Of a stretch of DNA of 40,261 nt, positions 14,595-36,574 are shown in pieces; the stretch's first letter is position 1; each line of letters opens with the position of its first letter. Both the position numbers and the translations under genes were made by a program. The notes under the pieces are model-generated. The model was not told the origin of the DNA. It did not search any database and worked only from the letters and a program-made list of their open reading frames with translations. Source of the DNA: Planctomycetota bacterium (GTDB lineage: Bacteria; Planctomycetota; Planctomycetia; Pirellulales; Pirellulaceae); contig JAQBZB010000049.1 in NCBI GenBank assembly GCA_027622275.1, forward strand, positions 1 through 40,261, written 5' to 3'.

Positions 14595-17291
14595 ATGCGA
14601 ATCAGACTAATCCTGTCACTGGCGATCTGCATGACGCTGGTCGGAGCGTCCTGGCAAACCGCGACAGCCGACGATGCCATCGCGGCGATCAACCAGCGGT
14701 TTGCGAGTGCGGACGTTCAGGAAACACCTAACTTCCAGAAACATGTTGTTCCGCTTTTTGGTCGGCTCGGTTGTAACGGCCGCGCCTGCCACGGCTCATT
14801 CCAGGGTCGAGGCGGTTTTCGCTTGTCGCTGTTTGGTTACGATTTCCAGGCGGATCACGACGCGATCTTCAATGAAGACAGCCCTCGCGTCGATCGCGAG
14901 AATCCACTCGCGAGTTTGATCCTTGCCAAGCCGATCGATGAGGATGTGCATGAAGGCGGAAAGCGGTACGAGAAGGATTCGTGGCAATTCCATGTCATCC
15001 GCCGTTGGATCGAAGGCGGAGCGGAGTTCAAGAAAGAGCAAGTTCAAAAGCTCACCGAGTTGAAGATCGTGCCCAACGAGATCTTGCTCAGCAAGACCGG
15101 CGAGGAGGTTCAAGTCAAGGCGATTGCCATTTGGGAAGATGGCAGCCAGGAAGATGTCACGCCGCTGTGCCGCTTCCAGTCGAACGACGACCAAGTCGCC
15201 GAAATCGATCAGAACGGTCTGGTCACGGCGACGAACCGGGGTGATACGCACTTGGTGATCTCTTATGACAAGGCGGTGGTGCCGGTCCCGGTCATCCGGC
15301 CCGTGACGGATCTCGTCGGTGACAAGTATCCACAAGTTGCCGCCAGGACGAAGGTCGATGAGCTGGTGATCGAGAAGCTCCGCAAGTTGGGAGTCGTCCC
15401 CTCCGAAGTCTGCGGCGATGCCGAATTCCTGCGTCGAGTGCGGCTCGATCTGACCGGTACGTTGCCGACGGCGGAAGAGGTCAAGGCCTTTCTGACCGAC
15501 GAAGACTCGAACAAACGCGGCAAGAAAGTTGACCAGTTGCTCGAAACGCCTGCCTATGCGGCGTGGTGGACGACCAAGTTGTGTGACTTTACTGGCAACA
15601 ACACGCAGAACCTTAATAACGTTTCGTCAGTTGGTCGCGAACATCCACCGACCCAGGATTGGTACGACTGGATCTATCGCCGAGTCGAGCAGAATGTGAC
15701 ATACGACAAGATCGTCGAAGGAATCGTTGCGAGCAACAACATGCCGCCCGGTCAGTCCTATACGGAATACTGCAAGATGATGAGCGATGTCTATCGCGAG
15801 GACGACAAGTCGTACGCCGACTTGCCCGCGATGGAGTATTACTGGTCGCGGCGTGACTTCAACAACAACATGGAAGCTCGCGCGATCGGATTTGCTTATT
15901 CCTTCATGGGACTGCGGATTCAGTGCGCCCAGTGCCACAAGCATCCGTTTGACGTTTGGTCAAAAGACGACTTCCATCAGTTCAAGAACTTCTTCGCGCG
16001 GATTCAGCCAGCGGCTCGGAATGCCCCTCGCGAATATCGTGACGAGTACAACAAGCTGGTCAAGGAACTGGGCATCGAAGGGAAACGCAACAACGAGTTA
16101 CAGCGTGAATTGCCAGCGTTGTTGAAGGAGGGAAAGACGATTCCGTTCGGTGCGATTACGACAAGCAACCGGCTGCTACGGACAAACAATCCCGACGAAG
16201 AGTACCCGAAGTTCGACGACGGCAAACTGCTTGGCGGTGATGTTGTCGATGTGATGAAAGTCGATGATCCGCGGAAGGTCGTCATGGACTGGCTTCGCGG
16301 TGCTGACAACCCGTTCTTTGCCAAGGCGTTTGTCAACCGGACATGGGCCGCGTACTTCAACGCCGGCATTGTCAACCCGCCGGACGATTTGAATCTCGCC
16401 AACCCACCCAGCAACAAGGCGTTGCTCGATCACCTCTCGAAGGGCTTTATCGAGAGCGGCTTCGACATGAAGTGGGTGCATCGGACGATTGCCAACAGCG
16501 ACACCTATCAGCGAAGTTGGCAGCCGAACGACACAAACAAGTTGGACGAGCGGAACTTCAGCCGCGCCGTTCCTCGTCGCCTGCCCGCCGAAGTCGCTTA
16601 CGACGCGATTCAGCAAGCGACGGCTTCCAATGCCAAGGCGAAATCCCTTTGTGACAGTATCGACGGCCGCGCGATCGCGATCGCCGGTGCAAGTGCCCGC
16701 AACGGAGGCAACAATGGACCGGCCTTCGCCCTGGCCGTGTTCGGCAAGTCGACTCGCGAAAGCAACTGCGATTGCGATCGGTCTTCGGAACCGAGCTTGC
16801 TGCAAACGGTCTTTTTGCAGAATGACCGTGATGTGCTGGGTTTGGTCGACGCCAATCGAGGCACTTGGCTCGATGGTGTCGCCCGCGACTTGAAGCCCCA
16901 GCCAACCACGGACGACGCGGCCACCGGACGAAAGAGCGCTTCGCTGGAGAGCCAGCTCAAGGCTGCCGAAACGCAGCTCCAGCGTTTTAAGAAGGCGAAT
17001 AACGAGCAGCAAGTTGCCAAAGCCGAGAGGAGAATCTCGCAGTTGGAAAAGCAACTCAATGAATCGAACGCGAGTATCGCCAAGGTGACAACTCAGCCGC
17101 ACGAAAGCGCCGACGAGAAAGTCACCAGCTACATTGTCGACGCTTATCTTCGTACGCTCAGCCGCTATCCGCAGCAGAGCGAGTTGACTCGTTCAGTAGC
17201 TTACGTCCAAGAGGCGAACGATCCCGTCGAAGGACTCGGCGATATCCTCTGGGCGCTCATTAACACCAAGGAGTTCATTGTTAACCATTAA
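14595..17291 (+). CDS. Exported DUF1549/DUF1553 protein with Ig-like domain and CxxCH motifs
   Basis: The 898-residue protein has a signal peptide (about 1-26), a cytochrome-like N-terminal region with CNGRACHG (Cys60, Cys65, His66), a bacterial Ig-like BIG_2 domain (about 152-235), DUF1549 (about 252-470) with CAQCH at 444-448, and DUF1553 from about 555 to the end. This is a hallmark planctomycete architecture. Its biochemical role is not established, and binding of heme or another ligand by the Cys-His motifs is inference. A charged coiled-coil segment (about 781-830) interrupts the DUF1553 part. I chose the ATG at 14595 because GGAGGG precedes it; an upstream ATG at 14553 would hide the signal peptide. 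The DUF1501 gene follows. Confidence 0.93.
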   Translation: MRIRLILSLAICMTLVGASWQTATADDAIAAINQRFASADVQETPNFQKHVVPLFGRLGCNGRACHGSFQGRGGFRLSLFGYDFQADHDAIFNEDSPRVDRENPLASLILAKPIDEDVHEGGKRYEKDSWQFHVIRRWIEGGAEFKKEQVQKLTELKIVPNEILLSKTGEEVQVKAIAIWEDGSQEDVTPLCRFQSNDDQVAEIDQNGLVTATNRGDTHLVISYDKAVVPVPVIRPVTDLVGDKYPQVAARTKVDELVIEKLRKLGVVPSEVCGDAEFLRRVRLDLTGTLPTAEEVKAFLTDEDSNKRGKKVDQLLETPAYAAWWTTKLCDFTGNNTQNLNNVSSVGREHPPTQDWYDWIYRRVEQNVTYDKIVEGIVASNNMPPGQSYTEYCKMMSDVYREDDKSYADLPAMEYYWSRRDFNNNMEARAIGFAYSFMGLRIQCAQCHKHPFDVWSKDDFHQFKNFFARIQPAARNAPREYRDEYNKLVKELGIEGKRNNELQRELPALLKEGKTIPFGAITTSNRLLRTNNPDEEYPKFDDGKLLGGDVVDVMKVDDPRKVVMDWLRGADNPFFAKAFVNRTWAAYFNAGIVNPPDDLNLANPPSNKALLDHLSKGFIESGFDMKWVHRTIANSDTYQRSWQPNDTNKLDERNFSRAVPRRLPAEVAYDAIQQATASNAKAKSLCDSIDGRAIAIAGASARNGGNNGPAFALAVFGKSTRESNCDCDRSSEPSLLQTVFLQNDRDVLGLVDANRGTWLDGVARDLKPQPTTDDAATGRKSASLESQLKAAETQLQRFKKANNEQQVAKAERRISQLEKQLNESNASIAKVTTQPHESADEKVTSYIVDAYLRTLSRYPQQSELTRSVAYVQEANDPVEGLGDILWALINTKEFIVNH

Positions 17292-17381
17292 TCGTGGGGT
17301 GCGCCGCCCGCGTGCCCGTCTAACAAACAGCCGACACGGTTCCGGCACGCTTGCCGCGTGCTCCACTTGAAAGGACGAAGA

Positions 17382-18716
17382 ATGAGAATTCATAAGACGT
17401 GTGATGGAGTGAAGCGACGTGATTTTCTGAAGGTCGGCGTGCTCGGCGGTGCCGGGTTAAGCTTGGCCAGCTATCTGCGACTTTTGGAAGCCGGTGAGGT
17501 TGCCGAGAAGTCGCGCGGCATGTCCGCCATATTCGTGAATTTGCCAGGCGGTCCGTCGCATATGGACACCTTCGATTTGAAGCCGAACGCGCCCACCGAG
17601 TTTCGTGGCACGTTCAATCCGATCGATACCAACGTGCCTGGAATCCAGATCAGCGAGCATCTGCCGAAGCTGGCCGGTTGCATGGACAAGTTCGTCATCT
17701 TGCGCGGCGTCAGCCATACGCTGGGCGCTCACGCGCTCGGTCAGGAATACGTCAATTGCGGCAGTCGGCCGTTGCCATCGCTGGAGTATCCCGGCTACGG
17801 TGCGGTTGTCGTGAAGGAAACGGAGCAGAACAACCCGACCGACTTGCCGTCGTTCGTTGCCGTGCCTAACAACACGCAACAGCGCCCCGGCTTCCTCGGC
17901 GTGAAGTATGCTCCGTTGAATACCGGCGACACACCAAAGGCGGGTCAGCCCTTCAGCGTCCGCGGCATCTCGCTGCAAGGCGGTTTGACCGTGGCCCAAG
18001 TCGAGAAGCGGCAAGGGCTGCTGAGCGACCTGGACGCAACGTTCCGCGCGGTGGAAGAGGACAGCCAGTTGCTGGAAGGTCTCGATCGCTTCAGCGAACA
18101 GGCCCATTCCATCATCACTTCCAAACGCTCGCGCGACGCGTTCGACATCAGCAAGGAATCGCCGGCGTTCGCCGAACCGTTCGGCGCAGATCCGTTTGGA
18201 TTGAGTTGCTTGCTCGCGACGCGGTTGGTCGAGTCAGGTGTGCGTTTCATCACGCTACAACTGGGCGGCTGGGACACGCATCAAGATAACTGGACCCGCT
18301 TGAGCAAAGGCAACGGCCGTAGTCCCGGCTTGCTGCCGCAGCTCGATACCGGTCTCTCGTCGTTGCTGAACGGTTTGGAGCAGAAAGGTCTGCTCGAATC
18401 GACGGCGATCTTCGTGACTGGCGAGTTCGGTCGGACGCCGAAGATCAACACGCGCAGTGCCGAAGGCGGCCGCGATCACTATCCACGCTGCATGTTCATG
18501 TTGCAGGCAGGTGGTTCGGTTCGCGGCGGACAAGCGATTGGCGAAAGCGACGAGAAGGCATCCATGCCGGCCAACGAAGGATTCACGCCGGATGATGTCG
18601 CCGCTTCCTTCTATCACAATGTCGGCATCGACCCCGCGAAGGAGTATCAGACAAACACCGGCCGGCCGATCACAATCGTCCGCGATGGTTCGGTGATTCG
18701 AAAGATGTTTGCGTAA
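17382..18716 (+). CDS. Tat-exported DUF1501 (sulfatase-like fold) protein
   Basis: The 444-residue protein begins with a twin-arginine signal (KRRDFLKVGVLGGAGLSLAS), so it should cross the membrane folded. The rest matches the DUF1501 family, related to alkaline phosphatase/sulfatase-type hydrolases, with SAIFVNLPGGPSHMDTFDLKP near the N-terminus and GGWDTHQDN and VTGEFGRTPKIN further on. In planctomycetes DUF1501 genes routinely follow DUF1549/DUF1553 genes, as here. The substrate is unknown. The ATG at 17382 has AAAGGA upstream; an earlier ATG at 17358 lacks one. A strong terminator follows the stop. Confidence 0.93.
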   Translation: MRIHKTCDGVKRRDFLKVGVLGGAGLSLASYLRLLEAGEVAEKSRGMSAIFVNLPGGPSHMDTFDLKPNAPTEFRGTFNPIDTNVPGIQISEHLPKLAGCMDKFVILRGVSHTLGAHALGQEYVNCGSRPLPSLEYPGYGAVVVKETEQNNPTDLPSFVAVPNNTQQRPGFLGVKYAPLNTGDTPKAGQPFSVRGISLQGGLTVAQVEKRQGLLSDLDATFRAVEEDSQLLEGLDRFSEQAHSIITSKRSRDAFDISKESPAFAEPFGADPFGLSCLLATRLVESGVRFITLQLGGWDTHQDNWTRLSKGNGRSPGLLPQLDTGLSSLLNGLEQKGLLESTAIFVTGEFGRTPKINTRSAEGGRDHYPRCMFMLQAGGSVRGGQAIGESDEKASMPANEGFTPDDVAASFYHNVGIDPAKEYQTNTGRPITIVRDGSVIRKMFA

Positions 18717-19635: not shown

Positions 19636-21204
19636 ATGAAGACGAATCGCACAACAACCGGCTTGCTGCTGATCGTTGTGCTGGCATTTCTTGGCGTGGC
19701 GCTGTTGGTAATCCCGCCGAAGATTGCGGCGATTTTCAATTCGCTTCCCGAGAACACTCCGCAGTGGTTGGTCTACGTCTACGCCGGACTTGTTGGAACC
19801 GGGGCGTTATTGCTGCTGGGATGTACGGTCACGATTCTGTGGCGGCTGTGGATCCGCACGAGACGGAAACAAGAGCGTCACGCTCGGCGCGTCAAGAATC
19901 CGAGTGAGCTGACGCGGGAGCAACGCGAGTACGAAGTCGAAGAGAACCTGAAGTCGGTCGACGATCTTCAGGCGGAACTCGACGCCGACAACGCGTTCCG
20001 GCGCGAGCTGGACCCGCTGGCGCATAAGATCGCCGAAAAACGTGAGTCGCAGCAGTTGGAGATCGTCGCGTTTGGGGCCATCTCTAGCGGCAAGTCCTCG
20101 CTGCTGAACGCGCTCGCCGGCGATGATGTCTTCGTCACCGATCTCAAAGGCGGCACCACCGCCCAGCGCAACGAGATCCCTTGGCCCGGTATCGACAGCG
20201 TGATGCTGGTCGATACGCCGGGGCTTGGCGAAGTTGACGGTGCCGCCCGCGGAGCCGTGTCGGCAGGCTCCGCCAAGGACGCCGATCTGGTGTTGCTGGT
20301 CGTCGACGGGCCGCTGCGCGAATGGGAATTCGAGTTGCTTACGCAGTTGGGCGACATGGGAAAGCGGGTGCTGGTCTGTTTGAACAAAGAAGATTGGTAT
20401 GACGCCGACGAGCGGGCGTCACTGCTTGGCCAGATCCGCCAACAGGTGAAGAGCTATGTGGACGCAGACGATATCGTAACCGTCCGGTCGCAATCGACGC
20501 AGCGTCCGCGAGTGCGCGTCTTGAGCGATGGCACGGAAACCGAGGAGATGGTTGATGTCCCGATCGATATCAGCGCCTTGGCCGATCGGATGATGAAGAT
20601 CGTCAAACGCGATGGCCGCGATTTGCTGCTCGGCAATCTGTTGTTGCAGTCGCGCGGATTGGTTGACGAGGCGCGGCGGCGAGTCGAGGACTCGCTGGAT
20701 CGACGAGCTTGGGAGACGGTCGATAAATACATGTGGGGCGCCGGCGGGGCGGCGGCCTTGAACCCGTTCCCGATTATCGATCTGATCGCGGGCTGCGCGA
20801 TCTCGACAAAGATGGTGGTCGATCTAGGGCGCGTCTACCGCCAAGACATCGATCTCGACGCCGCGGTCACTTTGGTGGGGCAACTGGGAAAGAACTTGAT
20901 CTCGATCCTCGGCGTCAGTGCCGCGACGCCGATTGTAGCTCCCGTCGTGGCATCGCTGCTCAAGACGGTGCCCGGCGTCGGGACGCTGGCGGGACAGTTG
21001 CTGCAAGGAATCGTGCAAGCTTTGATCACCCGTTGGATCGGGGCGGTGTTCATCCATTACTTCAAGAACGAGATGCAGCGGCCCGAGGGTGGATTGGCCG
21101 CGCTGGCTCGCAAAGAGTGGGAGAAGCTGACAACAATGGACGAACTGAGAAAGCTCGTTCGTGCCGCGAAAACGCATTTGTCATCCAGAACCGACGAAAA
21201 CTAA
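19636..21204 (+). CDS. Membrane-anchored dynamin-like GTPase with C-terminal DUF697-type region
   Basis: The 522-residue protein has two N-terminal membrane helices (about 8-26 and 43-68), a charged coiled-coil region, and a GTPase domain with G1 GAISSGKSS (147-155), a G2-like GGTT, G3 DTPG (193-196) and G4 NKED (250-253). The S-x-GKSS form of G1 is typical of dynamin-superfamily and related membrane GTPases. The C-terminal 170 residues are hydrophobic with the Gly/Ala-rich look of DUF697/YcjF proteins (YMWGAGGAAALNPFPIIDL). A second GTPase of the same layout starts five bases after its stop. Together they probably form a membrane-associated pair; the cellular role is unknown. Confidence 0.87.
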   Translation: MKTNRTTTGLLLIVVLAFLGVALLVIPPKIAAIFNSLPENTPQWLVYVYAGLVGTGALLLLGCTVTILWRLWIRTRRKQERHARRVKNPSELTREQREYEVEENLKSVDDLQAELDADNAFRRELDPLAHKIAEKRESQQLEIVAFGAISSGKSSLLNALAGDDVFVTDLKGGTTAQRNEIPWPGIDSVMLVDTPGLGEVDGAARGAVSAGSAKDADLVLLVVDGPLREWEFELLTQLGDMGKRVLVCLNKEDWYDADERASLLGQIRQQVKSYVDADDIVTVRSQSTQRPRVRVLSDGTETEEMVDVPIDISALADRMMKIVKRDGRDLLLGNLLLQSRGLVDEARRRVEDSLDRRAWETVDKYMWGAGGAAALNPFPIIDLIAGCAISTKMVVDLGRVYRQDIDLDAAVTLVGQLGKNLISILGVSAATPIVAPVVASLLKTVPGVGTLAGQLLQGIVQALITRWIGAVFIHYFKNEMQRPEGGLAALARKEWEKLTTMDELRKLVRAAKTHLSSRTDEN

Positions 21205-21209
21205 GTTCA

Positions 21210-22553
21210 ATGACCGAGCCAACGCTTCTAAAAGACGACCACTACCAGCGAGCCATTCAATCGCTGACGCAAACCTTGGAGAAGCTGCGCAATTGCTCGG
21301 AAGAAGAACGCGGCATCCTGCAGAACGACCTGCGCCAATTGCAGGACATGAGCAACAAGTTGACCAGCGGCCGCGTCGAGATCGTCGTGTTTGGCGAGAT
21401 CAGCACAGGCAAGTCCGCCTTGATTAACGCACTGGTCGGTCGCGAAGTTGCCGCGGTCGATGTGCAAGGTGGTTGGACCAAAGAGATTTGGAAAGTCGAC
21501 TGGGAGGGTGCCGGCTACTGCCTTCCAGGACTTGCCGATTCACAAGTCGTGTTGGTCGACACGCCTGGGTTAAACGAAGTTGGTGGTGCTGCCCGAGCCG
21601 AGATGGCTCGTGAAGCCGCGGAACGCGCGGACTTGATCCTGTTCGCGACAGACTCGGATGTGAACGAGACCGAGTTCTCCGCGCTGTTGACCTTGGCGAG
21701 TGTTAGCAAGCCGCTGATCGTTGTTCTGACCAAGAAGGATCTCTACTCGCCTGAACAACGCGTCCGGCTGCTGGAGGTCTTGCGCGACGATCGCTTGGCG
21801 AACGTGGTTTCCGACGAAGACATCATCATGACCGCGGCCGATCCCCGCGAAGTCGAGTACATTATCGAAGACGCCAAGGGCAAGACGCGGAGCGAGTGGC
21901 GCAGGCCCGCTCCCGACGTAGCCGAACTGAAAGCCCGGATTCTTGAGTTGCTTGAGCGCGACGGTCTCGCACTCGTGACACTGAACGCCGCCATGTACGC
22001 CGCCGATAAATCGGATCGCATCGCCTCGTTGCGAGTTCAATTGCGTGACAAGCATGCGAATCAAACGATTTGGAGTTACGCCGTCGTCAAAGCGGCTGTT
22101 GTTGCGTTTAATGTCGTGCCGCTGCTTGACACGCTCGGTGGCTTGGCTGTCGATGCCACGATGATCTACACCTTGGCACGTATCTATCGACTGGAGATGT
22201 CATGGACGCATGCTCGCCGGCTCGCAACCTCGATCGTCCAGGCAGCAGGTTGGATGATGCTCACCGAAGGCGCGACCCACCTTGCTTGCGGAGCGTTCAA
22301 GTTGCTAACCGTCGGTTACGGCACGATCGTCACGGCTGTCCCACAAGGGGCAGCGGCAGGTTACGGCTCGTACATCGTTGGACAGGCGGCGAAGTACTAC
22401 TTCGAGCATGGTTCGTCTTGGGGGAGCGAGGGACCGAAGCAAGTTGTGCGTCGTATTTTGGACGAAACCGATAAGCAGTCGGTGCTCGACCGGTTGAAGA
22501 ACGAGATTCGCAAGAAGCTCTTGTCAAACCGGCATGCTCCCGGCGGAAAATAG
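21210..22553 (+). CDS. Second dynamin-like GTPase, paired with the preceding one
   Basis: The 447-residue protein starts with a coiled-coil segment (about 10-52) instead of membrane helices. Its GTPase domain has G1 GEISTGKSA (62-70), a G2-like GGWT, G3 DTPG (117-120) and G4 TKKD (174-177). A hydrophobic C-terminal region follows that parallels the DUF697-like part of its neighbour (FNVVPLLDTLGGLAVDATMIYTLARIYRLEM). The ATG at 21210 is five bases after the previous stop. A much longer in-frame reading from 20733 is only the shadow of the first GTPase. The tandem arrangement suggests hetero-oligomers in which only the first subunit carries the N-terminal anchor. Confidence 0.87.
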   Translation: MTEPTLLKDDHYQRAIQSLTQTLEKLRNCSEEERGILQNDLRQLQDMSNKLTSGRVEIVVFGEISTGKSALINALVGREVAAVDVQGGWTKEIWKVDWEGAGYCLPGLADSQVVLVDTPGLNEVGGAARAEMAREAAERADLILFATDSDVNETEFSALLTLASVSKPLIVVLTKKDLYSPEQRVRLLEVLRDDRLANVVSDEDIIMTAADPREVEYIIEDAKGKTRSEWRRPAPDVAELKARILELLERDGLALVTLNAAMYAADKSDRIASLRVQLRDKHANQTIWSYAVVKAAVVAFNVVPLLDTLGGLAVDATMIYTLARIYRLEMSWTHARRLATSIVQAAGWMMLTEGATHLACGAFKLLTVGYGTIVTAVPQGAAAGYGSYIVGQAAKYYFEHGSSWGSEGPKQVVRRILDETDKQSVLDRLKNEIRKKLLSNRHAPGGK

Positions 22554-22655: not shown

Positions 22656-23840
22656 GTGTTGAACGAGAAAGAAAAGATCAACCGCATGAAGACCGGGCCG
22701 GCAACCGATAAGGGGCAACAATTCAACCGCTATCCGTGGTATGCCGTGCGGATCTGGCATGGGATGCGGCTTGGGGATTTCTATCGGCTGCTGTGGAAGA
22801 ACCGCTTTCGCGTTCATCCCGTGCATTGGAAGCGGGTCTTCACCGTGACTCTGTCCGGTTGTATGAACTCGACGTTCGGCGTGCTGCAAAGCCTCGTCTA
22901 CGGCCGCCGGATCGAGAGCACCGTCGTTGATCCGCCGCCGATATTTATCATCGGGCATTGGCGAAGTGGGACGACGTATTTGCACGAACTGCTGGTGCGC
23001 GACAAGCGGTTTGCGTATCCCACGACTTACCAGTGCTTCATGCCGCATCATTTCTTGGTGACCGGGTGGTTTCTGCCCAAGCTGCTGCGGTTCCTGCTGC
23101 CTTCCCAGCGCCCCATGGACAACATGGTGATGGGGTTTGACCATCCGCAGGAAGACGAGTTCGCACTGTGTTCGCTCGGTGCGCCAACACCTTACTTCCG
23201 CATGGCCTTTCCCAACCACGGCCCGGCCTACCAGGAATTCCTGGACATGCAAGACGTCGACAAGCGGGACCTGCGACGGTTCAAACGGGCGCTGCAGTCG
23301 TTCGTCAAAGCACTGACCCATCGCTACCGCCGGCAGTTGGTCCTCAAATCGCCGCCGCACACCGGCCGCATCGAACTGTTGGCCGAACTGTTTCCGGGCG
23401 CGAAATTCATTCACATCGTGCGCGACCCGTACCTGCTGTTTGCCTCCATGCGACGAACTTGGCAAGCCATGGACGGCGTGCAGAGTTTTCAAAAACCCAA
23501 GCATGACGATTTGGACGAGTACGTCTTGAGTTGCCTGGAGCGAATGTACGGCGGTTTCGAACGGCAGCGCGCGCGGATCGACCCGGCGACGATTTGCGAT
23601 CTGCGTTACGAAGATCTGGTACGCGATCCCGTCGGACAGCTACAGGTCGTATACCAGGCGCTCGAGCTGGGAGACTTTGAAGACCTGCGACAGGATCTTG
23701 AGGAGTATGTCGCCCAACAAAAGGATTACCAGCCGGGCCGCCACGAACTGACGCCCGAGTTGACGGCGGAAGTCGATCGTCGCTGGAGCGGCTATCGCGA
23801 CAAATACGGCTACGCTGCGTCGACGCGCGGCGAAAGCTAG
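22656..23840 (+). CDS. PAPS-dependent sulfotransferase family protein
   Basis: The family moves a sulfonate group from PAPS to a hydroxyl or amine. The 394-residue protein has the 5'-phosphosulfate loop HWRSGTTYL at 101-109 and the 3'-phosphate motif VRDPYLLFASM with Arg256 and Ser264. A conserved KSPPHTGR segment lies between them (231-238). The start is uncertain: a GTG at 22656 gives this length, while an ATG at 22686 would be ten residues shorter, and neither has a good ribosome-binding site. The gene ends tail-to-tail with the lipid synthase gene, the two stops sharing CTAG. The acceptor is unknown; a lipid made by that neighbour is a guess. Confidence 0.88.
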   Translation: MLNEKEKINRMKTGPATDKGQQFNRYPWYAVRIWHGMRLGDFYRLLWKNRFRVHPVHWKRVFTVTLSGCMNSTFGVLQSLVYGRRIESTVVDPPPIFIIGHWRSGTTYLHELLVRDKRFAYPTTYQCFMPHHFLVTGWFLPKLLRFLLPSQRPMDNMVMGFDHPQEDEFALCSLGAPTPYFRMAFPNHGPAYQEFLDMQDVDKRDLRRFKRALQSFVKALTHRYRRQLVLKSPPHTGRIELLAELFPGAKFIHIVRDPYLLFASMRRTWQAMDGVQSFQKPKHDDLDEYVLSCLERMYGGFERQRARIDPATICDLRYEDLVRDPVGQLQVVYQALELGDFEDLRQDLEEYVAQQKDYQPGRHELTPELTAEVDRRWSGYRDKYGYAASTRGES

Positions 23841-26800
23841 AAATGATACTTCGCGCAGGCGACTTGAATTCCAGGACTGACTTCGATGATCAGCCCGACT
23901 TCTCCGCGTTTCGGCCGCAGATCGCGCTGCGCGGCCTGCCAGGCGTTGGCCAGCGACGATGTAAACAAGTCCTTGTCCTTCGCGGCGACATCCACGACCG
24001 GCAAGTGTCCCAGCTGCAGCACCTCGATCAGCCGCGATGTAAACGACGAGGAGAATTGCGGCGGGAGGATCAGCGTGGGTTGGACCGCGTCCGGTTCTTC
24101 GCCGGCCAGGAACTCGCGCACGAACTCGGCGATGCACTTCAAGTAGTATTCCTCGATGTTCGGGTCTTGTTCCATCTGCAAATACGGTCGACCGTCGGTC
24201 AGTCGCGATTCGCAGAGAAATGCGTCGATGTAGTCGGTGAAGTACTTGATCGCGAGCCGGCCAAAGCCTTCTTGCGTGGGCCGTCCGTCGTCCAGAATCA
24301 TGGCCGAGGCGGTTTCTTGGACGCCGCGCAGATCGGTCGGCCGCACGTGCGTGTTGTTTTCGACCTCGGAGGCGACGACCATGACCTTCCGGTACTTGCC
24401 GGCGATGATCGCCTGGCGGGCGACGTCGCAGGCGTTCAACGTACCCATCGCACTGTTCACGATGTCAAAGGCAAACGTCTTGCGGGTCGACAAAGGATCG
24501 ACGTCCGCGTTCATCCCAAGTTCACCCGCGATGATCGCGGCGACCGCCGGTTCGGAAATGAACTCGGATCGGTAGACGCCGGTGAATATCAGCAATTCAA
24601 TGTCCTCGCGCCGATACTTCGACTGTTCGAGGCATTGCTCGGCGGCAGCGACGGCCAGCGACACGGTGTCATTATCTGTCGGTGTATGGTCAGCGGGGAC
24701 GACGCCGACGCTTTCGATGCGGGCGCATGGAATGTTGCCATTAGGCGAGGTTTCGCGCCGCTTGGCCGCGAGTTGGCTAAGCGGCTTACGACCGCTGGAT
24801 TGGGCCTGCCGCAGTCGTTCCGGCAAGTCATCGAGTGTGTACAGCGCCGTGCCCACGGTTTGGCCGGAAGCGGAGATGGGGAACATGACTTGCTGATCCG
24901 ACTGGATCTGGCCGTCCAGGATGGCGTCCCAGAGGGCCACGAAGTGACTGGTCGAAGCCGTGTTGCCGCGCTCGGCAAGGTTGTTGATTGTGTTGGCGCG
25001 GATGTTCTTGTTGGCCAGCAAGTTCATCGCTTGCTTGGCCGCGTTAATGGACGACTCGGAAGTCTGATGCATGATGATGTGGTCCGCCGTATCGCGCGAC
25101 CAGAGGTTGGCGGCGCAGATCGAAGCGGCATGCAGGACGGAATGCTTGATGGCCACGGAAGCCAGCTTGCTGGGTTGCGAGTACATGATCGCGCCGCCGT
25201 GTGGCTGGTCCGTCGCCTTGCCGATGCACAGGTCGCTGTAGCTGCCCAGCGTGTAGAGATTGATGTCGTGAAAGCCGACGGTGTCGTCGACGGAATTCTC
25301 CAAGATCACCGCCGCCCCCGCGTCGCCCAACGTCAAGCAGGCCAAGCGTTCGTCCTTAAACCCTTCGATCTCTCGCTGGGCCGTCTTCGTCAAGTGCGTG
25401 ATGTACTCGCCACTGACGACCAGCGCGCACTGAGCGCGGCCCGCGGCCAAATAGGCCTGCGCGACGTGGATCGCCGTGAACATGCCCGCGCAAGCGTTGC
25501 TAACGTCGAAGGCCAGCGCGTTGTCGCAGCCGAAGTGTTTCTTCAGCCGGACGGCCGTGCTGGGCTCGAAGGACATGCGGTCGGGACCATCGTGCCGGGA
25601 GATGCTGCAACAAATCAGCAGGTCGATGTCACCGGCCGCTCGGCGCGAAGACGCCAAGCACTGCTCGATGGCCTTGGTGGCCAGATCGATGGAGAACTCC
25701 GTCGTGCCGGCCTCGCGATGGTTGCGGATGCCGGTAATCAATTGCAGCGGAAACGTCACCTCGCGCGTACACGCTTGTAAGACCTCGCCGGTCGAAACGA
25801 CCGTGGGCGGCAGGTACACACCCAGGGATTCGATGACCATGTTCTTCGAGCCCACGGCGTCAGCGGCGATGTTCGCATCATCACGCTCGGTCCGCGGTTC
25901 GCCGCGCTGGGCGAGCCGGGGATGATCCGGCAAACGCAGCAACTCGGCGATTTCTGCGATCGAGGGATGTGCTTCGACGAGCGCTGGGGTGAGGTGATAC
26001 CCTTGCTCAATCACCATTGCCGCGACCCTCACCCGGTCGGCGGCGCCGCCTCCCCAACTGCCGATGTTTTCGTAGATGCCGATGTCTTTGGTCCTGAGCG
26101 CTTGGCTCCACGCATCCAGCAGTTGCTCTTCCAGCGAATCGCGCGGCGGCGTCTTCAATTCGGCCAGCAGTTGGTCGCGGTCCACCTCGCCGCGCTCGGT
26201 CAGCGGGATGCCACTCAGCGGCAGCAGCGCCAACGAATCGGCACCGTCAAAATGCTGCTTCAAGACCCGCCGGAGAGCGATCAGGCTGGGCATGGAATCG
26301 GATTGCGGCACGAAACAACCGACCAAGCTCGGCGGTCCGTTCTCTTGGCAATACTCAATTGCCTCCACCTCGTCAATCGACGCCAGCGCAGCGAGCGCCG
26401 AGCGAACTTCGTCCTCCTTGGTCCTGCTCAAGGTGTGCGAGAGGCCGCCTTCGTGCCCCATCTCGTCGGCAGCGGGCTGGACCGTGATTCCCAGCGAGTG
26501 GCAGCATGCGGCCAAGTGCCGGCTGAGCGATTCGATGGTGGGATGCTGCATCACGATGTCGGGCGACAGCGGAAATCCCAGCCACTTCTCCAAGTCCATC
26601 GAGATTTCCATTCCGATCAGCGAGTCGACGCCGAGCAGGGCCAGCGGCTTGCCGATGTCGATGCGGTCCGGCGGCACATTCATCTTTTGCGAAAGCTGCT
26701 GGACCAGCCAGTGCTGGATGCTGCGGCAAACTGCCAGCTCCCGAGCTGTCATCGCCGGTCCCGCAGAGTCGGGCGTCGCGGCGTCGCTCGCGGCCGCTTC

Positions 26801-28558
26801 GGCGATGTCCGTCGACAGCCACTTGGCGACCACCTTGAGTTCGTTCTGCTGAAAGTCATCGCGGCACGCCGTCCGCTTGATCTTGCCACTGGTGGTGCGG
26901 GGAATACTGTGTGGTCTGACCAGCACGATGGCGTAGGGGACCAATTCGTGATTCTTGTTTAACTCGGAAGCAATCTCGGCCACCACTACGTCGGTGTCGA
27001 TGTCGGATTGCCCGCGCTCGACTTCGTGGACGAGCACCAAACGCTCTTCGTTGTTAACGCGGACCGAGAAAGCGGCACCAGCGGACGAGCGAAGCGACTC
27101 GGAGCAGCCTTCGGCCGTCCGTTCGATGTCCTGCGAATAGTGGTTCTGACCGCGGATAACGATCACATCCTTGAGCCGCCCCGTAACGTACAAATGGCCT
27201 TCGTGGATAAACCCCAAGTCACCGGTTCGCAAGTACGGCCCTCGGTCGGAGCCAGACAGTTCACCGCCAAACATCTCTTCCGTCAACTCGGGGCGGTTCC
27301 AATATCCTCGTGCAACACTCGGACCGGACGTCCAAATCTCGCCGACCCGGTCGTCCGCGCATCGCTCGTGAGTCTCCGGGTCGACAATGACGACGTCGCT
27401 TCCGGGAGTAGCGTGTCCGCAAGCCACAAACGCCTGGCCGTCGTCGCCCGTCACCACCACCTGATTCTCTCTGAGCCGTTGCGGGCAGAAGTGAACCACG
27501 GTCGGCGCGGCGGGACCCGTGCCGCCGGTGATCATCAACGTCGACTCGGCCATCCCGTAACAGGGATAAAAGGCTTCGCGCCGGAACCCGCAGGGGGCAA
27601 ACGTCTCGGCGAACTTGTCGAGAACTTCATCGCTGATCGGCTCGGCCCCGCAGAACGCGATTCGCCAACTGCTCAAGTCCAATTCGGCCCGCTGCTCGGC
27701 GCTGATCTTCTCAGTGCATAGCTGGTAAGCGAACGTCGGCCCACCGCTGATGGTTCCCTGGTATTGGGTAATCGCTTTAAGCCAGCGCACGGGATTTTGC
27801 ACGAACGACACGGGCGACATCAGCGTGGTCTGCGCTCCCACAAACATCGGTTCCAAGATACCGCCGATCAGCCCCATGTCGTGAAACATCGGCAGCCACG
27901 TCACACCCATGCCGTCGGGGTCAATCCGAAAGCCATCGCGAATGGCGGACAAGTTGTGGATCAGGTTGCCGTGCGTGACCATCACTCCCTTGGGATCACC
28001 CGTCGACCCGGACGTGTACTGCAGGAAGGCGATGGCGTTCTCGTTCGCCATCGAGTCGGGGCCTGGGCCATCGTCGCCCACCGGCATGTCACCAGTGGTC
28101 AGCCACCGCAGCGACCGCAGTTCGGGAACTGAGTCGAATTGATGCTCGATGCTGGTATGGACGTCGGTGGTGGTCAGCGCCAGCGTAGCGCCCGAATCGA
28201 CTATGATCTTCTGCAGCAGATCGCTGGCCCGCTTTCGGCGCGGCGGTTGCGTGGGGACGGCGATCACTCCGGCATGCAGACAGCCCAAGAACGCGGCGAT
28301 GTATTCCAGACCGGGGTCGTAAACCAACAGAGCCCGCGTGCCCACGTCAGCCTGCGACCGCAACAGCGACGCGATGTTGGCCGCCCGCTGTCGGAGCATT
28401 TCGTAGGTCCACTCGATCGGCCGCGTATCGCCGTCGCCCAGGTATACGTAAGCCAATTGGTTTGGCTGCCGCACCGCCCACTCGCGAAGTACATCGATGA
28501 GAGTAGCGGATATGGATAGGGACCGTGTCATGTCCGATTCGATAGGTAGTCTGGGCAT
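23837..28558 (-). CDS. Giant fatty acyl-AMP ligase / carrier / KAS III fusion with paired degenerate domains
   Basis: The 1573-residue protein reads as six modules. (1) Fatty acyl-AMP ligase, 15-585, with YTSGSTGDPKGVMVTH, YGMAEST, the FAAL-type IRGQNHYSQDIE and catalytic Lys559. (2) Carrier domain with the phosphopantetheine Ser646 in GVDSL. (3) Orphan adenylation C-terminal subdomain, about 711-800, whose key Lys is Glu791 (GEVDR). (4) Carrier-like domain, 808-875, with Ala839 where Ser should be. (5) KAS III with Cys1023, His1164 and Asn1199. (6) A second KAS III fold, about 1277-1573, with Ala1370 and Pro1500 at the Cys and His sites. Likely job: activate a fatty acid, load it on Ser646 and condense it. 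The start is at 28558 (or 28531); a longer reading overlaps the PQQ gene. Confidence 0.88.
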   Translation of the reverse strand: MPRLPIESDMTRSLSISATLIDVLREWAVRQPNQLAYVYLGDGDTRPIEWTYEMLRQRAANIASLLRSQADVGTRALLVYDPGLEYIAAFLGCLHAGVIAVPTQPPRRKRASDLLQKIIVDSGATLALTTTDVHTSIEHQFDSVPELRSLRWLTTGDMPVGDDGPGPDSMANENAIAFLQYTSGSTGDPKGVMVTHGNLIHNLSAIRDGFRIDPDGMGVTWLPMFHDMGLIGGILEPMFVGAQTTLMSPVSFVQNPVRWLKAITQYQGTISGGPTFAYQLCTEKISAEQRAELDLSSWRIAFCGAEPISDEVLDKFAETFAPCGFRREAFYPCYGMAESTLMITGGTGPAAPTVVHFCPQRLRENQVVVTGDDGQAFVACGHATPGSDVVIVDPETHERCADDRVGEIWTSGPSVARGYWNRPELTEEMFGGELSGSDRGPYLRTGDLGFIHEGHLYVTGRLKDVIVIRGQNHYSQDIERTAEGCSESLRSSAGAAFSVRVNNEERLVLVHEVERGQSDIDTDVVVAEIASELNKNHELVPYAIVLVRPHSIPRTTSGKIKRTACRDDFQQNELKVVAKWLSTDIAEAAASDAATPDSAGPAMTARELAVCRSIQHWLVQQLSQKMNVPPDRIDIGKPLALLGVDSLIGMEISMDLEKWLGFPLSPDIVMQHPTIESLSRHLAACCHSLGITVQPAADEMGHEGGLSHTLSRTKEDEVRSALAALASIDEVEAIEYCQENGPPSLVGCFVPQSDSMPSLIALRRVLKQHFDGADSLALLPLSGIPLTERGEVDRDQLLAELKTPPRDSLEEQLLDAWSQALRTKDIGIYENIGSWGGGAADRVRVAAMVIEQGYHLTPALVEAHPSIAEIAELLRLPDHPRLAQRGEPRTERDDANIAADAVGSKNMVIESLGVYLPPTVVSTGEVLQACTREVTFPLQLITGIRNHREAGTTEFSIDLATKAIEQCLASSRRAAGDIDLLICCSISRHDGPDRMSFEPSTAVRLKKHFGCDNALAFDVSNACAGMFTAIHVAQAYLAAGRAQCALVVSGEYITHLTKTAQREIEGFKDERLACLTLGDAGAAVILENSVDDTVGFHDINLYTLGSYSDLCIGKATDQPHGGAIMYSQPSKLASVAIKHSVLHAASICAANLWSRDTADHIIMHQTSESSINAAKQAMNLLANKNIRANTINNLAERGNTASTSHFVALWDAILDGQIQSDQQVMFPISASGQTVGTALYTLDDLPERLRQAQSSGRKPLSQLAAKRRETSPNGNIPCARIESVGVVPADHTPTDNDTVSLAVAAAEQCLEQSKYRREDIELLIFTGVYRSEFISEPAVAAIIAGELGMNADVDPLSTRKTFAFDIVNSAMGTLNACDVARQAIIAGKYRKVMVVASEVENNTHVRPTDLRGVQETASAMILDDGRPTQEGFGRLAIKYFTDYIDAFLCESRLTDGRPYLQMEQDPNIEEYYLKCIAEFVREFLAGEEPDAVQPTLILPPQFSSSFTSRLIEVLQLGHLPVVDVAAKDKDLFTSSLANAWQAAQRDLRPKRGEVGLIIEVSPGIQVACAKYHF

Positions 28559-33448: not shown

Positions 33449-34327
33449 TTGACGCTTTGGAAAGTCTACTGCATGGAAGATGACTTCCCAGGCTTATGGC
33501 ACAGACTGTATCGTCATCAGTGCGTCGCTGTTGGTTGGCCTCCACAGCATCACAAGATACAAAAGAAGACCAACGACCGTGGATTGGCACGAGTACGAAA
33601 CTCGCTCTCTCGCATGGCCATCGGAGATTACGTCGTCGCTGCATTGAAAGGAAATCGCGTCGGACGACTTGGCCAAATTACATCGTTGGCGGTCAACGAT
33701 GACGAATGGGATCCCCTCGTTCCGGAAAGCAAAGACCTTCCGTACGGACAAATGGGGCGTCGCGTTAATGTACGCTGGGATTTGGCATGTGGCCCTACAG
33801 ATCGTGATCTAATTGTACTTCTACCGGAAGGATCAAGATTTACTAGCAGCGAACTGTTGCCGACCATATCGGAAATCAAGTCTCAAACAGTTTCCCAATT
33901 GCAATCTGCAATGAACGACCCGACGAACTGGGTGGGTCTGCTAGCGCATTTTAAATATGAACGCGCATTGTCCGATTACATCGCTGCTTATCCGCATCAC
34001 TTGGAGGACGGCTTGGTCCCGCATCCCGACTCAAAGATTCGCGAGAAGGTCTTTTCCGATCGCAAACGGCTCGATGTATTATTGCTTGATCGCGAAGAGC
34101 GACCTGTTATCGTAGAATGCAAACAAGGATCACCGACCCTAAATGATCTCAAACAACTTCGGCATTATATGCGCTCACTAAAGAAAGAGACTGGCCGCAA
34201 CGATGTGCGAGGCATTTTGGTTCATGGCGGCTCTCGCAATCTACATCAAAAAATTGCCAAGGCCGCTGCACTTGCTCCACCGGTTGAAATCGTACAGTAT
34301 CGCCTGCAAGTCGAGTTCGCTGGCTAA
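33449..34327 (+). CDS. Two-domain nuclease: PUA/EVE-like N-terminus plus NucS-like PD-(D/E)XK domain
   Basis: The 292-residue protein starts at a TTG with GGAG six bases upstream. The C-terminal domain (about 170-292) is of NucS/RecB-like endonuclease type: Asp209 in KRLDVLLLD, then Glu223 and Lys225 in PVIVECKQG, followed by the helix LNDLKQLRHYMRSL. These form a complete PD-(D/E)XK site. Residues 1-112 (GDYVVAALKGNRVGRLGQI, GRRVNVRWD) resemble the PUA/EVE-like barrels that read modified bases in restriction systems, a weaker call. Codon use is A+T-richer than the neighbours. The stop codon TAA lies inside an R''-like box and the gene begins 20 bases after an R'-like box, as in an integron cassette. 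A DNA-targeting defence role is inferred. Confidence 0.8.
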   Translation: MTLWKVYCMEDDFPGLWHRLYRHQCVAVGWPPQHHKIQKKTNDRGLARVRNSLSRMAIGDYVVAALKGNRVGRLGQITSLAVNDDEWDPLVPESKDLPYGQMGRRVNVRWDLACGPTDRDLIVLLPEGSRFTSSELLPTISEIKSQTVSQLQSAMNDPTNWVGLLAHFKYERALSDYIAAYPHHLEDGLVPHPDSKIREKVFSDRKRLDVLLLDREERPVIVECKQGSPTLNDLKQLRHYMRSLKKETGRNDVRGILVHGGSRNLHQKIAKAAALAPPVEIVQYRLQVEFAG

Positions 34328-34387: not shown

Positions 34388-36574
34388 TCATTCCGCGCGG
34401 TTTTTCAAGCAAGTGGCGACGATGCGAATCTCGTCGTAGCCGATCTCGCCGTTCAGGTGCTGGTGAATCGGCTGCAACCGCTCGTTTCCCACTTGTTCGA
34501 TCGCCTGCTCGATGCGTTGCACGACTTCGGGCGCGACCCAGGTTGACGGATCGACGACCTTCTCGTGCTTCAAGTAGTCGTTCAAATAGCCCGAAACCGT
34601 CGAGCGGGCTCGATTCATTCGCTGGCATATCTCTTCGATCGAGGTGCCTTGGCGAAAGAACGGGAAGGCGGCGATCGACGATGCGTTGACGCCGCTACTG
34701 ACTGGCGCGGCCGCCCTGGTTACGGTTGTCGGCGCGATATCCTGAGCGAGTTGTTCCTGTCTGCAATGACGATTGATCGCGTCGACGAACTCTTGTCCGT
34801 AGTCTTCGAGCTTCTTCTCGCCGACCCCTTTCACCTTGCGAAAGCCAGCGAGCGTTGACGGACGGAGACGGGCCATATCGCGCAATGCCGCATCACCAAA
34901 GACAACGTAAGCCGGCACGCCTTGCTGATTCGCCTTCGTGCTCCGCAACTCGCGTAGCTTGTCAAACAACCCACGATCGACGCCGTCCCAGGAATCGGCG
35001 GCGACGGTGCGCGACTCGCGCCGCGTCTCGGCGGGACGCAACAGTTGCGGAGCGGCTTCCCGCTTCAGCAAGCGCCGGCCCGAATCGGTGACTTGCAACA
35101 GGTTGAATTCGCCCGCCTTCTCAAGAAAACCTTGCCCGACCAATTGCTCGATCCAATCGCGCACGGTGTTCAAACCATCCTCGCGCAGCAGGCCATACGT
35201 ACTTAGCCGATCGTGTCCCAATTGCATGATCCGTTGCTCTTGCGAACCGACCAAGACCTTGGCGGTATAGTCGGCACCGAACCGCTGCTCCAGGCGTAAG
35301 ACGCACGACAGAATCTTCTGTCCGATCGTGATCGGGTCGTCGACCAGATCCAACTCGCCGAGACACACGTCGCAGGCTCCGCAATTGTCGCCTTCCAAGT
35401 CTTGGCCGAAGTACTGGACGATCGCCCGATGACGGCAGACGACGCTGGTGCAGAAATCTTGCATCGCGTCCAACGAACGAAACGCGCCCTCGCGAGCGGA
35501 AGGCTCGGAGTCGGCGAGCATCTTGCGCCACGTCACAACATCCCCTGCCCCGAACAGCAGCGTGCATTCAGCTTCCAGCCCGTCACGCCCCGCGCGACCG
35601 CTCTCTTGCTGGTAATGCTCCAGCGACTTCGGCATCCCGCTATGCGCAACGAACCGGACGTTTGGCTTGTCGATTCCCATCCCGAAGGCGACCGTGGCAA
35701 CAATCACATCGACTCGATCTTCGATGAACGCCTCTTGATTCTTGCGCCGGTCTATGTCAGTCATGCCCGCGTGGTACGGGGCGGTGCGATAGCCGAGCCC
35801 TGCGAGTCCGGCGGCGGTCTTGTCGACTTCCTTGCGGCTGATGCAATAGACAATCCCCGATTCGCCGCGATGCCGCTCCAAGACTTCGCAGATCTGTTGG
35901 AACCTGCCGCTCGCGCGACGGACTCGGTACGACAAGTTCGGGCGATCAAAGCTGCCGACCAACATCGTCGGCTCGTCCAAGTCAAGCTGCTGGGCGATGT
36001 CTTGCCGCACTTGCTCCGAAGCGGTTGCCGTATAGGCATGAATACCAACGCCGGGGAACCGCTGCTTCAACACGCGCAGGCCGCGGTATTCGGGACGAAA
36101 GTCATGGCCCCACGCGCTGATGCAATGAGCCTCGTCGATCGCGATCAACGACACGCCTGCCGTGCTGAGAAAGTTCAACGTCTGCTCAGATAATAGCCGC
36201 TCGGGAGCAACGTACACGAGCTTCAATTCGCGACGACGGATCTGACCGGCAATCTCGCGCTTCTCCGGCCCGGAGAGTGTGCTGTTGATAAACGCGGCCG
36301 GTACACCACACGAGCGCAACGTATCGACTTGGTCTTTCATCAACGAGATCAACGGCGACACGACCAGCGCCAAGCCGTCCAAACAAACCGCCGGTGCCTG
36401 AAAGCAAAGCGATTTGCCGCCGCCGGTCGGCAGGACGACGACGCTGTCCCGGCCCGCCATCACGCACGACATCGCCTCTTCTTGCAAGGGAAGAAACTCG
36501 TCGTAGCCCCAGTATTGGCGCAGTGTGTCTTGCAATAACGTGGTCGGCGTCTGCTGCTGTGATGTCGTCGACAT
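34388..36574 (-). CDS. recQ: ATP-dependent DNA helicase RecQ
   Basis: RecQ unwinds DNA 3' to 5' in recombination and repair. The 728-residue protein has Walker A PTGGGKS at 49-55, DEAH at 147-150 (IDEAHCISAWGHDFRPEY), motif VI SGRAGRDG, a zinc-binding region ending in CGACDVC, the RQC winged helix, an HRDC domain (RLRPSTLAGFRKVKGVGEKKLEDYG) and an extra C-terminal helix-turn-helix (SIEEICQRMNRARSTVSGYL) seen in longer RecQ proteins. All catalytic motifs are intact. Its stop is 26 bases from the end of the attC-like half site, marking the boundary between resident DNA and the cassette region. Confidence 0.97.
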   Translation of the reverse strand: MSTTSQQQTPTTLLQDTLRQYWGYDEFLPLQEEAMSCVMAGRDSVVVLPTGGGKSLCFQAPAVCLDGLALVVSPLISLMKDQVDTLRSCGVPAAFINSTLSGPEKREIAGQIRRRELKLVYVAPERLLSEQTLNFLSTAGVSLIAIDEAHCISAWGHDFRPEYRGLRVLKQRFPGVGIHAYTATASEQVRQDIAQQLDLDEPTMLVGSFDRPNLSYRVRRASGRFQQICEVLERHRGESGIVYCISRKEVDKTAAGLAGLGYRTAPYHAGMTDIDRRKNQEAFIEDRVDVIVATVAFGMGIDKPNVRFVAHSGMPKSLEHYQQESGRAGRDGLEAECTLLFGAGDVVTWRKMLADSEPSAREGAFRSLDAMQDFCTSVVCRHRAIVQYFGQDLEGDNCGACDVCLGELDLVDDPITIGQKILSCVLRLEQRFGADYTAKVLVGSQEQRIMQLGHDRLSTYGLLREDGLNTVRDWIEQLVGQGFLEKAGEFNLLQVTDSGRRLLKREAAPQLLRPAETRRESRTVAADSWDGVDRGLFDKLRELRSTKANQQGVPAYVVFGDAALRDMARLRPSTLAGFRKVKGVGEKKLEDYGQEFVDAINRHCRQEQLAQDIAPTTVTRAAAPVSSGVNASSIAAFPFFRQGTSIEEICQRMNRARSTVSGYLNDYLKHEKVVDPSTWVAPEVVQRIEQAIEQVGNERLQPIHQHLNGEIGYDEIRIVATCLKNRAE

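What the first reader, a model, noticed from the sequence alone, without database searches (positions are those of the whole stretch)
23837..28558. Lipid synthase in which every active module has a dead twin
One 1573-residue chain holds an intact fatty acyl-AMP ligase, an intact carrier (Ser646) and an intact KAS III (Cys1023/His1164/Asn1199). It also holds an adenylation C-terminal subdomain with Glu791 for Lys, a carrier with Ala839 for Ser, and a KAS III fold without its triad. FAAL-carrier fusions are known in lipid and polyketide pathways, but I know of no described protein with this order and this consistent live/dead pairing. It may load a fatty acid, condense it and use the dead copies as structural or substrate-holding partners.
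Basis: partly seen in the sequence, partly recalled or inferred. Interest (0 to 1): 0.82.

Follow-up and report, generated by a model that had tools for sequence, protein, structure and literature searches.

The report
Fatty-acid loader fused to two-part chain-joiner
A planctomycete protein joins a fatty-acid loading unit to a two-part chain-joining enzyme related to the one that builds lipstatin, with a switched-off but still maintained peptide-synthetase remnant in between; two of its three 'dead' parts are that remnant, and the third is probably still needed for the reaction.

Summary
In detail: one 1573-aa chain with FAAL, live ACP (Ser646), an A-domain C-subdomain with Glu791 for Lys, a carrier with Ala839 for Ser, a live KAS III (Cys1023/His1164/Asn1199) and a triad-less KAS III'. 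'Every live module has a dead twin' is only partly right: the dead parts have two different origins. (1) KAS III/KAS III' is an LstA-LstB-type heterodimer fused in one chain: 17 KAS III' plus 4 LstB-like proteins form one clade, 17 KAS III plus 4 LstA-like another. KAS III' lacks Cys and His in 17 of 17 but keeps a Glu (E1336) aligned with OleA Glu117 and, by position, with LstB Glu60, reported essential. (2) The dead A_C-carrier is the leftover of an NRPS module: all 11 relatives examined keep Lys and Ser there, and in 10 of 14 genomes with the pair outside the genus it ends an NRPS line with PKS or FAAL parts. One other genome was found with the collapsed form. Both dead domains look selectively maintained (dN/dS about 0.15). 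Most likely the enzyme loads a fatty acid on its own ACP and condenses it, without decarboxylation, with a second acyl chain; the reaction is inferred.

The parts
26819..28507 (-). Fatty acyl-AMP ligase (residues 18-580), own C-subdomain with Lys559
   Evidence: PF00501 E 8e-69, AMP-dom_DIP2-like; PDB 7r7f E 3e-164; Lys559
26507..26725 (-). Live acyl carrier domain (residues 612-684), Ser646
   Evidence: PF00550 E 7e-18; Ser646
26168..26425 (-). Inactive adenylation C-terminal subdomain A_C' (residues 712-797), Glu791 for Lys; remnant of an NRPS module
   Evidence: 7ly4 BmdB match; Lys in 11/11 relatives examined; fold; dN/dS 0.15
25943..26167 (-). Inactive carrier T' (residues 798-872), Ala839 for Ser; remnant of the same NRPS module
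   Evidence: Ser in 11/11 relatives examined; fold; dN/dS 0.16
24824..25846 (-). Live KAS III, LstA-like (residues 905-1245): Cys1023, His1164, Asn1199; Glu998 at the OleA Glu117 position
   Evidence: PF08545/PF08541; triad 17/17; LstA-like clade 100/98
23840..24733 (-). KAS III', LstB-like (residues 1276-1573): triad absent, conserved Glu1336
   Evidence: profile match to KAS III; Cys and His absent, Glu present 17/17; LstB-like clade 100/100
24551..24553 (-). Codon of Glu1336, predicted cross-subunit base
   Evidence: aligned with OleA residue 117 and with the LstB-like Glu at CDS positions 57-59
22656..23840 (+). Convergent sulfotransferase gene, also beside the genus-mate's synthase; link to the synthase unproven
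   Evidence: PF13469 E 7e-36; 85% identical neighbour in L117, no match at E 1e-6 in the other 12 loci compared

Best explanation
A self-loading, single-chain, LstAB-type condensing enzyme. Step 1 (inferred from domains): the FAAL turns a fatty acid into acyl-AMP and loads it on Ser646 of the adjacent ACP. Step 2 (inferred): Cys1023 of the live KAS III takes the acyl group from the ACP. Step 3 (inferred from OleA, PpyS and LstAB): KAS III' packs against KAS III as a FabH-like pseudo-dimer and puts Glu1336 into the live active site, where it deprotonates the bound acyl chain for a non-decarboxylative (head-to-head) Claisen condensation with a second acyl thioester, giving a 2-alkyl-3-keto acid or thioester. 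The A_C'-T' segment is what is left of an NRPS elongation module of the kind that feeds the pair in relatives; it lost catalysis but is kept as a folded connector or docking part. Shown here: homology of both halves to LstA/LstB-like proteins, their conserved residues, the NRPS origin of A_C'-T', and signs of purifying selection on them. Not shown: any activity, the substrates, the product, or the geometry of the pair.
For: Tree: 17 KAS III' + 4 LstB-like on one side of a branch at 100/100; 17 KAS III + 4 LstA-like at 100/98, apart from 12 ordinary KAS III. For each of four KAS III' tested the best match is LstB-like rather than any KAS III (for G187 narrowly, 74.7 against 72.4 bits). Three of four actinobacterial loci read carry, with small unnamed genes between some of them, KAS III, LstB-like, fatty acid CoA ligase family, epimerase and NRPS genes in that order, and two of these show a formyltransferase next. 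One LstA-like protein has Cys128/His271/Asn305, the numbers given for LstA (PMC12141560, section 5 read). KAS III triad 17/17; KAS III' without Cys and His 17/17; Glu998 and Glu1336 17/17, against Glu in 5 of 27 ordinary KAS III. The OleA alignment puts chain residue 117 on Glu1336, and PDB titles name OleA E117A/D/Q mutants. In G385 the pair is two genes overlapping by ATGA. AlphaFold of the tandem: pLDDT 85, pTM 0.92. dN/dS per domain. Architecture of relatives.
Against: Glu998 on the live half is also invariant (17/17; also 4/4 LstA-like), though in an intramolecular pair it would face the dead pocket; so invariance alone does not prove that Glu1336 is catalytic, or live-live pairing between chains may occur. 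The live KAS III scores higher with FabH models (134.8, 116.6 bits) than with PRK09258 (105.5), the model I take to be OleA-like from memory; KAS III' scores best with PRK09258 in the window and G120 but with FabH models in G073. Structure Z-scores for OleA, FabH and PqsD are tied. KAS III' has a higher dN/dS (0.21) than A_C' and T'. The Asn column of KAS III' is loosely aligned: one search puts an Asn of G141 there, one search does not. G385 KAS III' and all four LstB-like proteins have a Cys one residue past the nucleophile position. No ole/lst-type partner gene was called beside the window gene; OleA-like and PRK09274-like genes lie elsewhere in the genome.
Confidence: 0.6

Rival explanations
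1. FabH/PqsC-like condensation: the live KAS III extends the FAAL-derived acyl chain with malonyl-ACP/CoA (decarboxylative) or another nucleophile, and KAS III' is a passive scaffold like PqsB.
For: Full Cys/His/Asn triad as in FabH; the live half's highest family scores are FabH models; PqsB lacks all three triad residues and was given a likely scaffolding role (PMC4807248, passages read).
Against: Tree places the pair with LstA/LstB-like proteins; Glu at the OleA Glu117 position in both halves, 17/17, against 5/27 of ordinary KAS III.
Confidence: 0.22
2. One reading: each dead copy is a structural or substrate-holding partner of the live copy of the same kind.
For: A_C' and T' show low dN/dS, and the parts fold as expected.
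Against: A_C' and T' are catalytically intact in the 11 relatives examined, where they belong to a C-A-T module, not to the FAAL/ACP. The FAAL has its own C-subdomain.
Confidence: 0.1
3. A decaying fusion or an assembly artefact with no present function.
For: The collapsed form was found in only two genomes, both of one genus; a third genus member lacks the pair.
Against: The genus-mate has it whole in a separate assembly at 85% identity; dN/dS 0.11-0.22 over all six domains; no stop codon in either frame.
Confidence: 0.05

Closest known systems
LstA-LstB, KAS-III heterodimer of lipstatin biosynthesis (Streptomyces toxytricini)
   Same: Live triad-bearing partner plus a shorter partner with a Glu near its residue 60; the two halves here fall with LstA-like and LstB-like proteins.
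   Different: Two separate proteins using acyl-CoAs (PMC12141560); here fused, behind a carrier and a FAAL. The lst-type loci have CoA ligase, epimerase and NRPS genes beside the pair; none was called beside the window gene.
OleA (Xanthomonas campestris) and PpyS (Photorhabdus)
   Same: Glu of one subunit serving the other's active site (PMC4578411, passages); same alignment position as OleA Glu117.
   Different: Homodimers (PpyS by homology model) with two live sites, stand-alone.
PqsC-PqsB
   Same: Live/dead KAS III pair.
   Different: PqsC lacks the Asn; condenses octanoyl-CoA with 2-aminobenzoylacetate; two proteins; no cross-subunit Glu was described in the passages I read.
PKS-NRPS lines ending in KAS III-KAS III' (planctomycete relatives, e.g. 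the G030 3950-aa chain)
   Same: G030: FAAL-ACP start and A_C-T-KAS III-KAS III' end.
   Different: G030 keeps KS-AT-MT-ACP and C-A in between, with active Lys and Ser.

Membership tests
LstA/LstB-type KAS III heterodimer | Triad-bearing LstA-like partner in the LstA clade | tested here: met
   Triad 17/17; 17 K1 + 4 LstA-like together at 100/98 (tree drawn with a midpoint root)
LstA/LstB-type KAS III heterodimer | LstB-like partner encoded next to it, in the LstB clade, with the Glu reported as essential | tested here: met
   17 K2 + 4 LstB-like together at 100/100; Glu1336 aligned with Glu57-59 of four LstB-like proteins. S. toxytricini LstA and LstB themselves were not in hand
LstA/LstB-type KAS III heterodimer | Non-decarboxylative condensation of two acyl chains | not testable with these tools
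   needs biochemistry
LstA/LstB-type KAS III heterodimer | Two separate subunits | tested here: not met
   One chain here; G385 has two genes with ATGA overlap
OleA | Homodimer with two catalytically complete subunits | tested here: not met
   KAS III' lacks Cys and His 17/17
FAAL | Adenylation domain with FAAL-type sequence and catalytic Lys, followed by a carrier | tested here: met
   acyl-AMP formation not testable here
Functional NRPS elongation module | Condensation domain, whole A domain with A10 Lys, carrier Ser | tested here: not met
   No C domain or second A core called; Glu791, Ala839
PqsBC | PqsC without the triad Asn | tested here: not met
   Asn1199 present; no further KAS III or AMP ligase was called in the 30 other window ORFs scanned

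The most novel reading that the evidence does not exclude
A fused LstA-LstB pair is an undescribed terminal domain of PKS-NRPS assembly lines that releases the chain by a non-decarboxylative Claisen reaction, either head-to-head with a second acyl chain or as a ring closure, with the triad-less half supplying the base. In this genus the line has collapsed into a self-loading two-chain lipid condenser whose silent NRPS remnant is kept by selection.
Probability: 0.4. Interest if true: 0.75.

Novelty: new variant of a known kind. Interest (0 to 1): 0.55.

Why it matters
It ties a puzzling live/dead protein to a known enzyme pair, predicts that the 'dead' KAS III supplies a catalytic Glu, and shows an assembly line reduced to its two ends with the inactivated remnant apparently still under selection. 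The planctomycete PKS-NRPS relatives would be a new place to look for LstAB-type chain fusion or release chemistry.

Tried and rejected
Simple internal deletion of one G030-like chain: the two ends match G030 in order, but the FAAL tree puts the window FAAL-ACP beside a Pyrinomonadaceae FAAL, not with the FAALs of the other KAS III-pair clusters (53 rows, with 21 of the 79 other genome-contig loci chosen by me and two duplicate loci left out; quick tree; G030 a long branch). Holding window and G001 with the five f3 FAALs gives p-AU 0.053, and adding G030 gives 0.023. So fusion of a different FAAL-ACP to an NRPS tail, or later FAAL exchange, is as possible.

Sulfotransferase as a pathway partner: beside both collapsed synthases, no match in the other 12 loci compared, some of them short contigs. 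Left open.

Wider spread: of 40 genomes (of the 80 loci) holding other FAALs, mostly cyanobacteria, none has a KAS III' at E below 1e-30; two have single KAS III frames at 1e-26 and 1e-27. In a phylum draw of 392 genomes 7 matched at 1e-20 or better: own, G385 (2e-62), and five at about 1e-22 that are single KAS III-sized frames with the full triad. In the plasmid collection, 8 of 162 records with a match cover at least 80% of the tandem in one place. I read four records.

Print: searches for KAS III pairs with NRPS or FAAL listed no paper whose title or shown abstract describes this architecture; they cover only the open-licence library and only my terms. A search on Dieckmann/tetramic acid release was listed only, not read. 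Malleicyprol BurF (passages) uses a C domain for chain fusion, so it is not this.

VIA-align rows cover model residues 1-349, so KAS III' is barely tested there.
Full report
WHAT IS THERE. The minus-strand frame 23837-28558 encodes 1573 aa, and every residue named in the finding is as stated. Pfam calls FAAL, PP-binding and KAS III. The segment 714-874 matches the A_C-carrier part of the NRPS BmdB; its model (pLDDT 84) matches A-PCP regions of LgrA, SrfA-C and EntF. A profile of 14 sequences of the last 298-residue type matches FabH at 2.7e-26; the window sequence alone reaches 4.9e-6. The FAAL keeps its own C-subdomain and Lys559. The genome is 9.78 Mb in 555 contigs. That it is a planctomycete rests on PSCyt2/PSD1/DUF1501 genes in the window (the link of these families to planctomycetes is recalled) and on a genus-mate whose record is titled Planctomycetota KLAP164 (its 11,862-base contig has the length of G001:C1014).

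RELATIVES. With residues 905-1573 as query, 13 of 196 genomes (own included) hold the whole tandem, in 14 places. An order-wide draw found 14 of 396 at E 1e-30 or better, own included, adding G577 and G668, and a phylum draw added G385. Outside the genus that makes 14 genomes. Architectures: G030 has one 3950-aa chain FAAL-ACP-KS-AT-MT-ACP-C-A-T-KAS III-KAS III'. G187, G120, G192 and G155 have chains of 1789-1806 aa; Pfam on G187 and G192 gives C-A-T-KAS III-KAS III', and the other two follow by alignment. A FAAL-bearing frame of 2692-2724 aa lies directly upstream in all four; Pfam on G187's gives FAAL-ACP-KS-AT-MT-KR-ACP. G181 has a 1463-aa frame at a contig edge, (C)-A-T-pair, and a second 706-aa pair on another contig. 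G073, G008, G103 and G115 have a C-A-T gene followed by a stand-alone pair of 676-704 aa, and G141's pair lies in a 1072-aa frame after a C-A-T gene, with PKS ketosynthase genes upstream; Pfam was run on G073, G115 and G141, tblastn on the rest. G577 has A_C-T before the pair and G668 is cut by a contig edge. G385 has none of these NRPS or PKS domains by tblastn in the 16 kb fetched; its KAS III and KAS III' are two genes overlapping by ATGA, near an epimerase/3beta-HSD-like gene and ATPase genes. Only G001 was found to share the collapsed FAAL-ACP-A_C'-T'-KAS III-KAS III' form; G002 of the same genus lacks the pair.

THE DEAD A_C AND CARRIER. In the 11 relatives examined outside the genus (6 in-chain, 5 from the upstream gene; G577 was not examined) the A_C Lys and the carrier Ser are present; in the window and G001 they are Glu and Ala. 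So these parts descend from a working NRPS module. They do not look as if they were simply rotting: between window and G001, dN/dS is 0.12 FAAL, 0.22 ACP, 0.15 A_C', 0.16 T', 0.11 KAS III, 0.21 KAS III', and 0.29, 0.58, 0.55, 0.40 in four linkers. Bootstrap intervals are wide (A_C' 0.06-0.30, T' 0.06-0.32; linkers from 0.09 to above 1) and overlap; it is one pair of genomes.

THE KAS III PAIR. In 17 of 17 pairs (16 genomes) the first copy has Cys, His and Asn, and the second has neither Cys nor His at those positions. The Asn is also missing from all 17 in that alignment, but the stretch aligns loosely and a second alignment of 9 pairs puts an Asn of G141 there. G385 and the four LstB-like proteins have a Cys one residue past the nucleophile position. 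Both copies carry a Glu just before a Pro in 17 of 17. HMMER aligns the second copy's Glu with residue 117 of OleA, the residue of the E117A/D/Q structures. For OleA, Glu117 of one monomer reaches into the other's pocket, and in PpyS an E105A change abolished product (PMC4578411, passages read). Of 29 other KAS III loci tried, 27 could be aligned; Glu occurs in 5, and all 27 have the triad. Seven of the 27 had been picked up by the KAS III' profile, and four of the five with Glu are among these.

LINK TO LstA/LstB. A plasmid search gave adjacent KAS III gene pairs in Rhodococcus and Streptomyces. Of four loci read, three have KAS III, LstB-like, fatty acid CoA ligase family, epimerase and NRPS genes in that order, with small unnamed genes between some, and two of them show a formyltransferase gene next; the fourth has the pair without these. 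That this is the order of the lipstatin operon is recalled; the review section read (PMC12141560) says that LstA and LstB adjoin, that LstA has C128/H271/N305, and that LstAB E60A is soluble but inactive. One LstA-like protein here has exactly C128/H271/N305, and the LstB-like Glu sits at 57-59. In the tree 17 K2 + 4 LstB-like stand on one side of a branch at 100/100 and 17 K1 + 4 LstA-like at 100/98, apart from 12 controls taken from the 27. G385's KAS III falls with the LstA-like proteins, so the fused forms alone (16) make a clade inside.

MECHANISM. Shown: homology, conserved residues, domain origins, signs of selection. Inferred: FAAL loading of Ser646, transfer to Cys1023, base catalysis by Glu1336, condensation with a second acyl chain. 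AlphaFold gives the tandem pTM 0.92, which fits a fixed pseudo-dimer, but no coordinates were returned and the interface was not seen. Against a simple story: Glu998 on the live side is just as invariant, also in the four LstA-like proteins, and the live copy scores best with FabH models. In the relatives the pair follows a carrier of an NRPS module, so there it would act on a peptidyl or aminoacyl chain; head-to-head joining or ring closure are both possible and untested.

ORIGIN OF THE FUSION. The ends fit a collapse of a long FAAL-PKS-NRPS chain, but the FAAL-ACP groups with an Acidobacteriota FAAL, and a grouping with the other clusters' FAALs is borderline or rejected (p-AU 0.053 and 0.023). 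Deletion within one chain and fusion of a foreign FAAL-ACP remain open.

NOVELTY. The pair is a known kind (LstAB); its fusion, its place at the end of PKS-NRPS lines, and the FAAL-ACP form with a silent module are, as far as my searches show (open-licence library, titles and shown abstracts only), not described. I file it as a new variant of a known kind.

Noticed in passing
G385, locus L137 2684-5064: Free-standing KAS III and KAS III' genes with ATGA overlap beside an epimerase/3beta-HSD-like gene and ArsA-like ATPases, in a different family of the phylum: an lst/ole-like locus.
   Followed up: partly
relatives G002-G195, e.g. L157, L158, L160: 188 of 196 genomes matched the window FAAL-ACP at E 1e-80, very often in a frame of about 1130-1260 aa whose C-terminal part beyond the carrier I did not identify.
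   Followed up: no
own genome G000:C398 (L003 and the 2400-aa FAAL frame matched at 16651-18669): A second FAAL megasynthase frame within about 6 kb of a single KAS III that has Val at the OleA Glu117 position.
   Followed up: no
window 19636-21204 (+) and 20733-22553 (+): Two overlapping frames, both with DUF697 and an MMR_HSR1/dynamin-type GTPase domain: two adjacent related GTPases.
   Followed up: no
window 33449-34327 (+): NucS C-terminal-like nuclease domain in a 292-aa frame next to a RecQ-type helicase (34388-36574, -).
   Followed up: no
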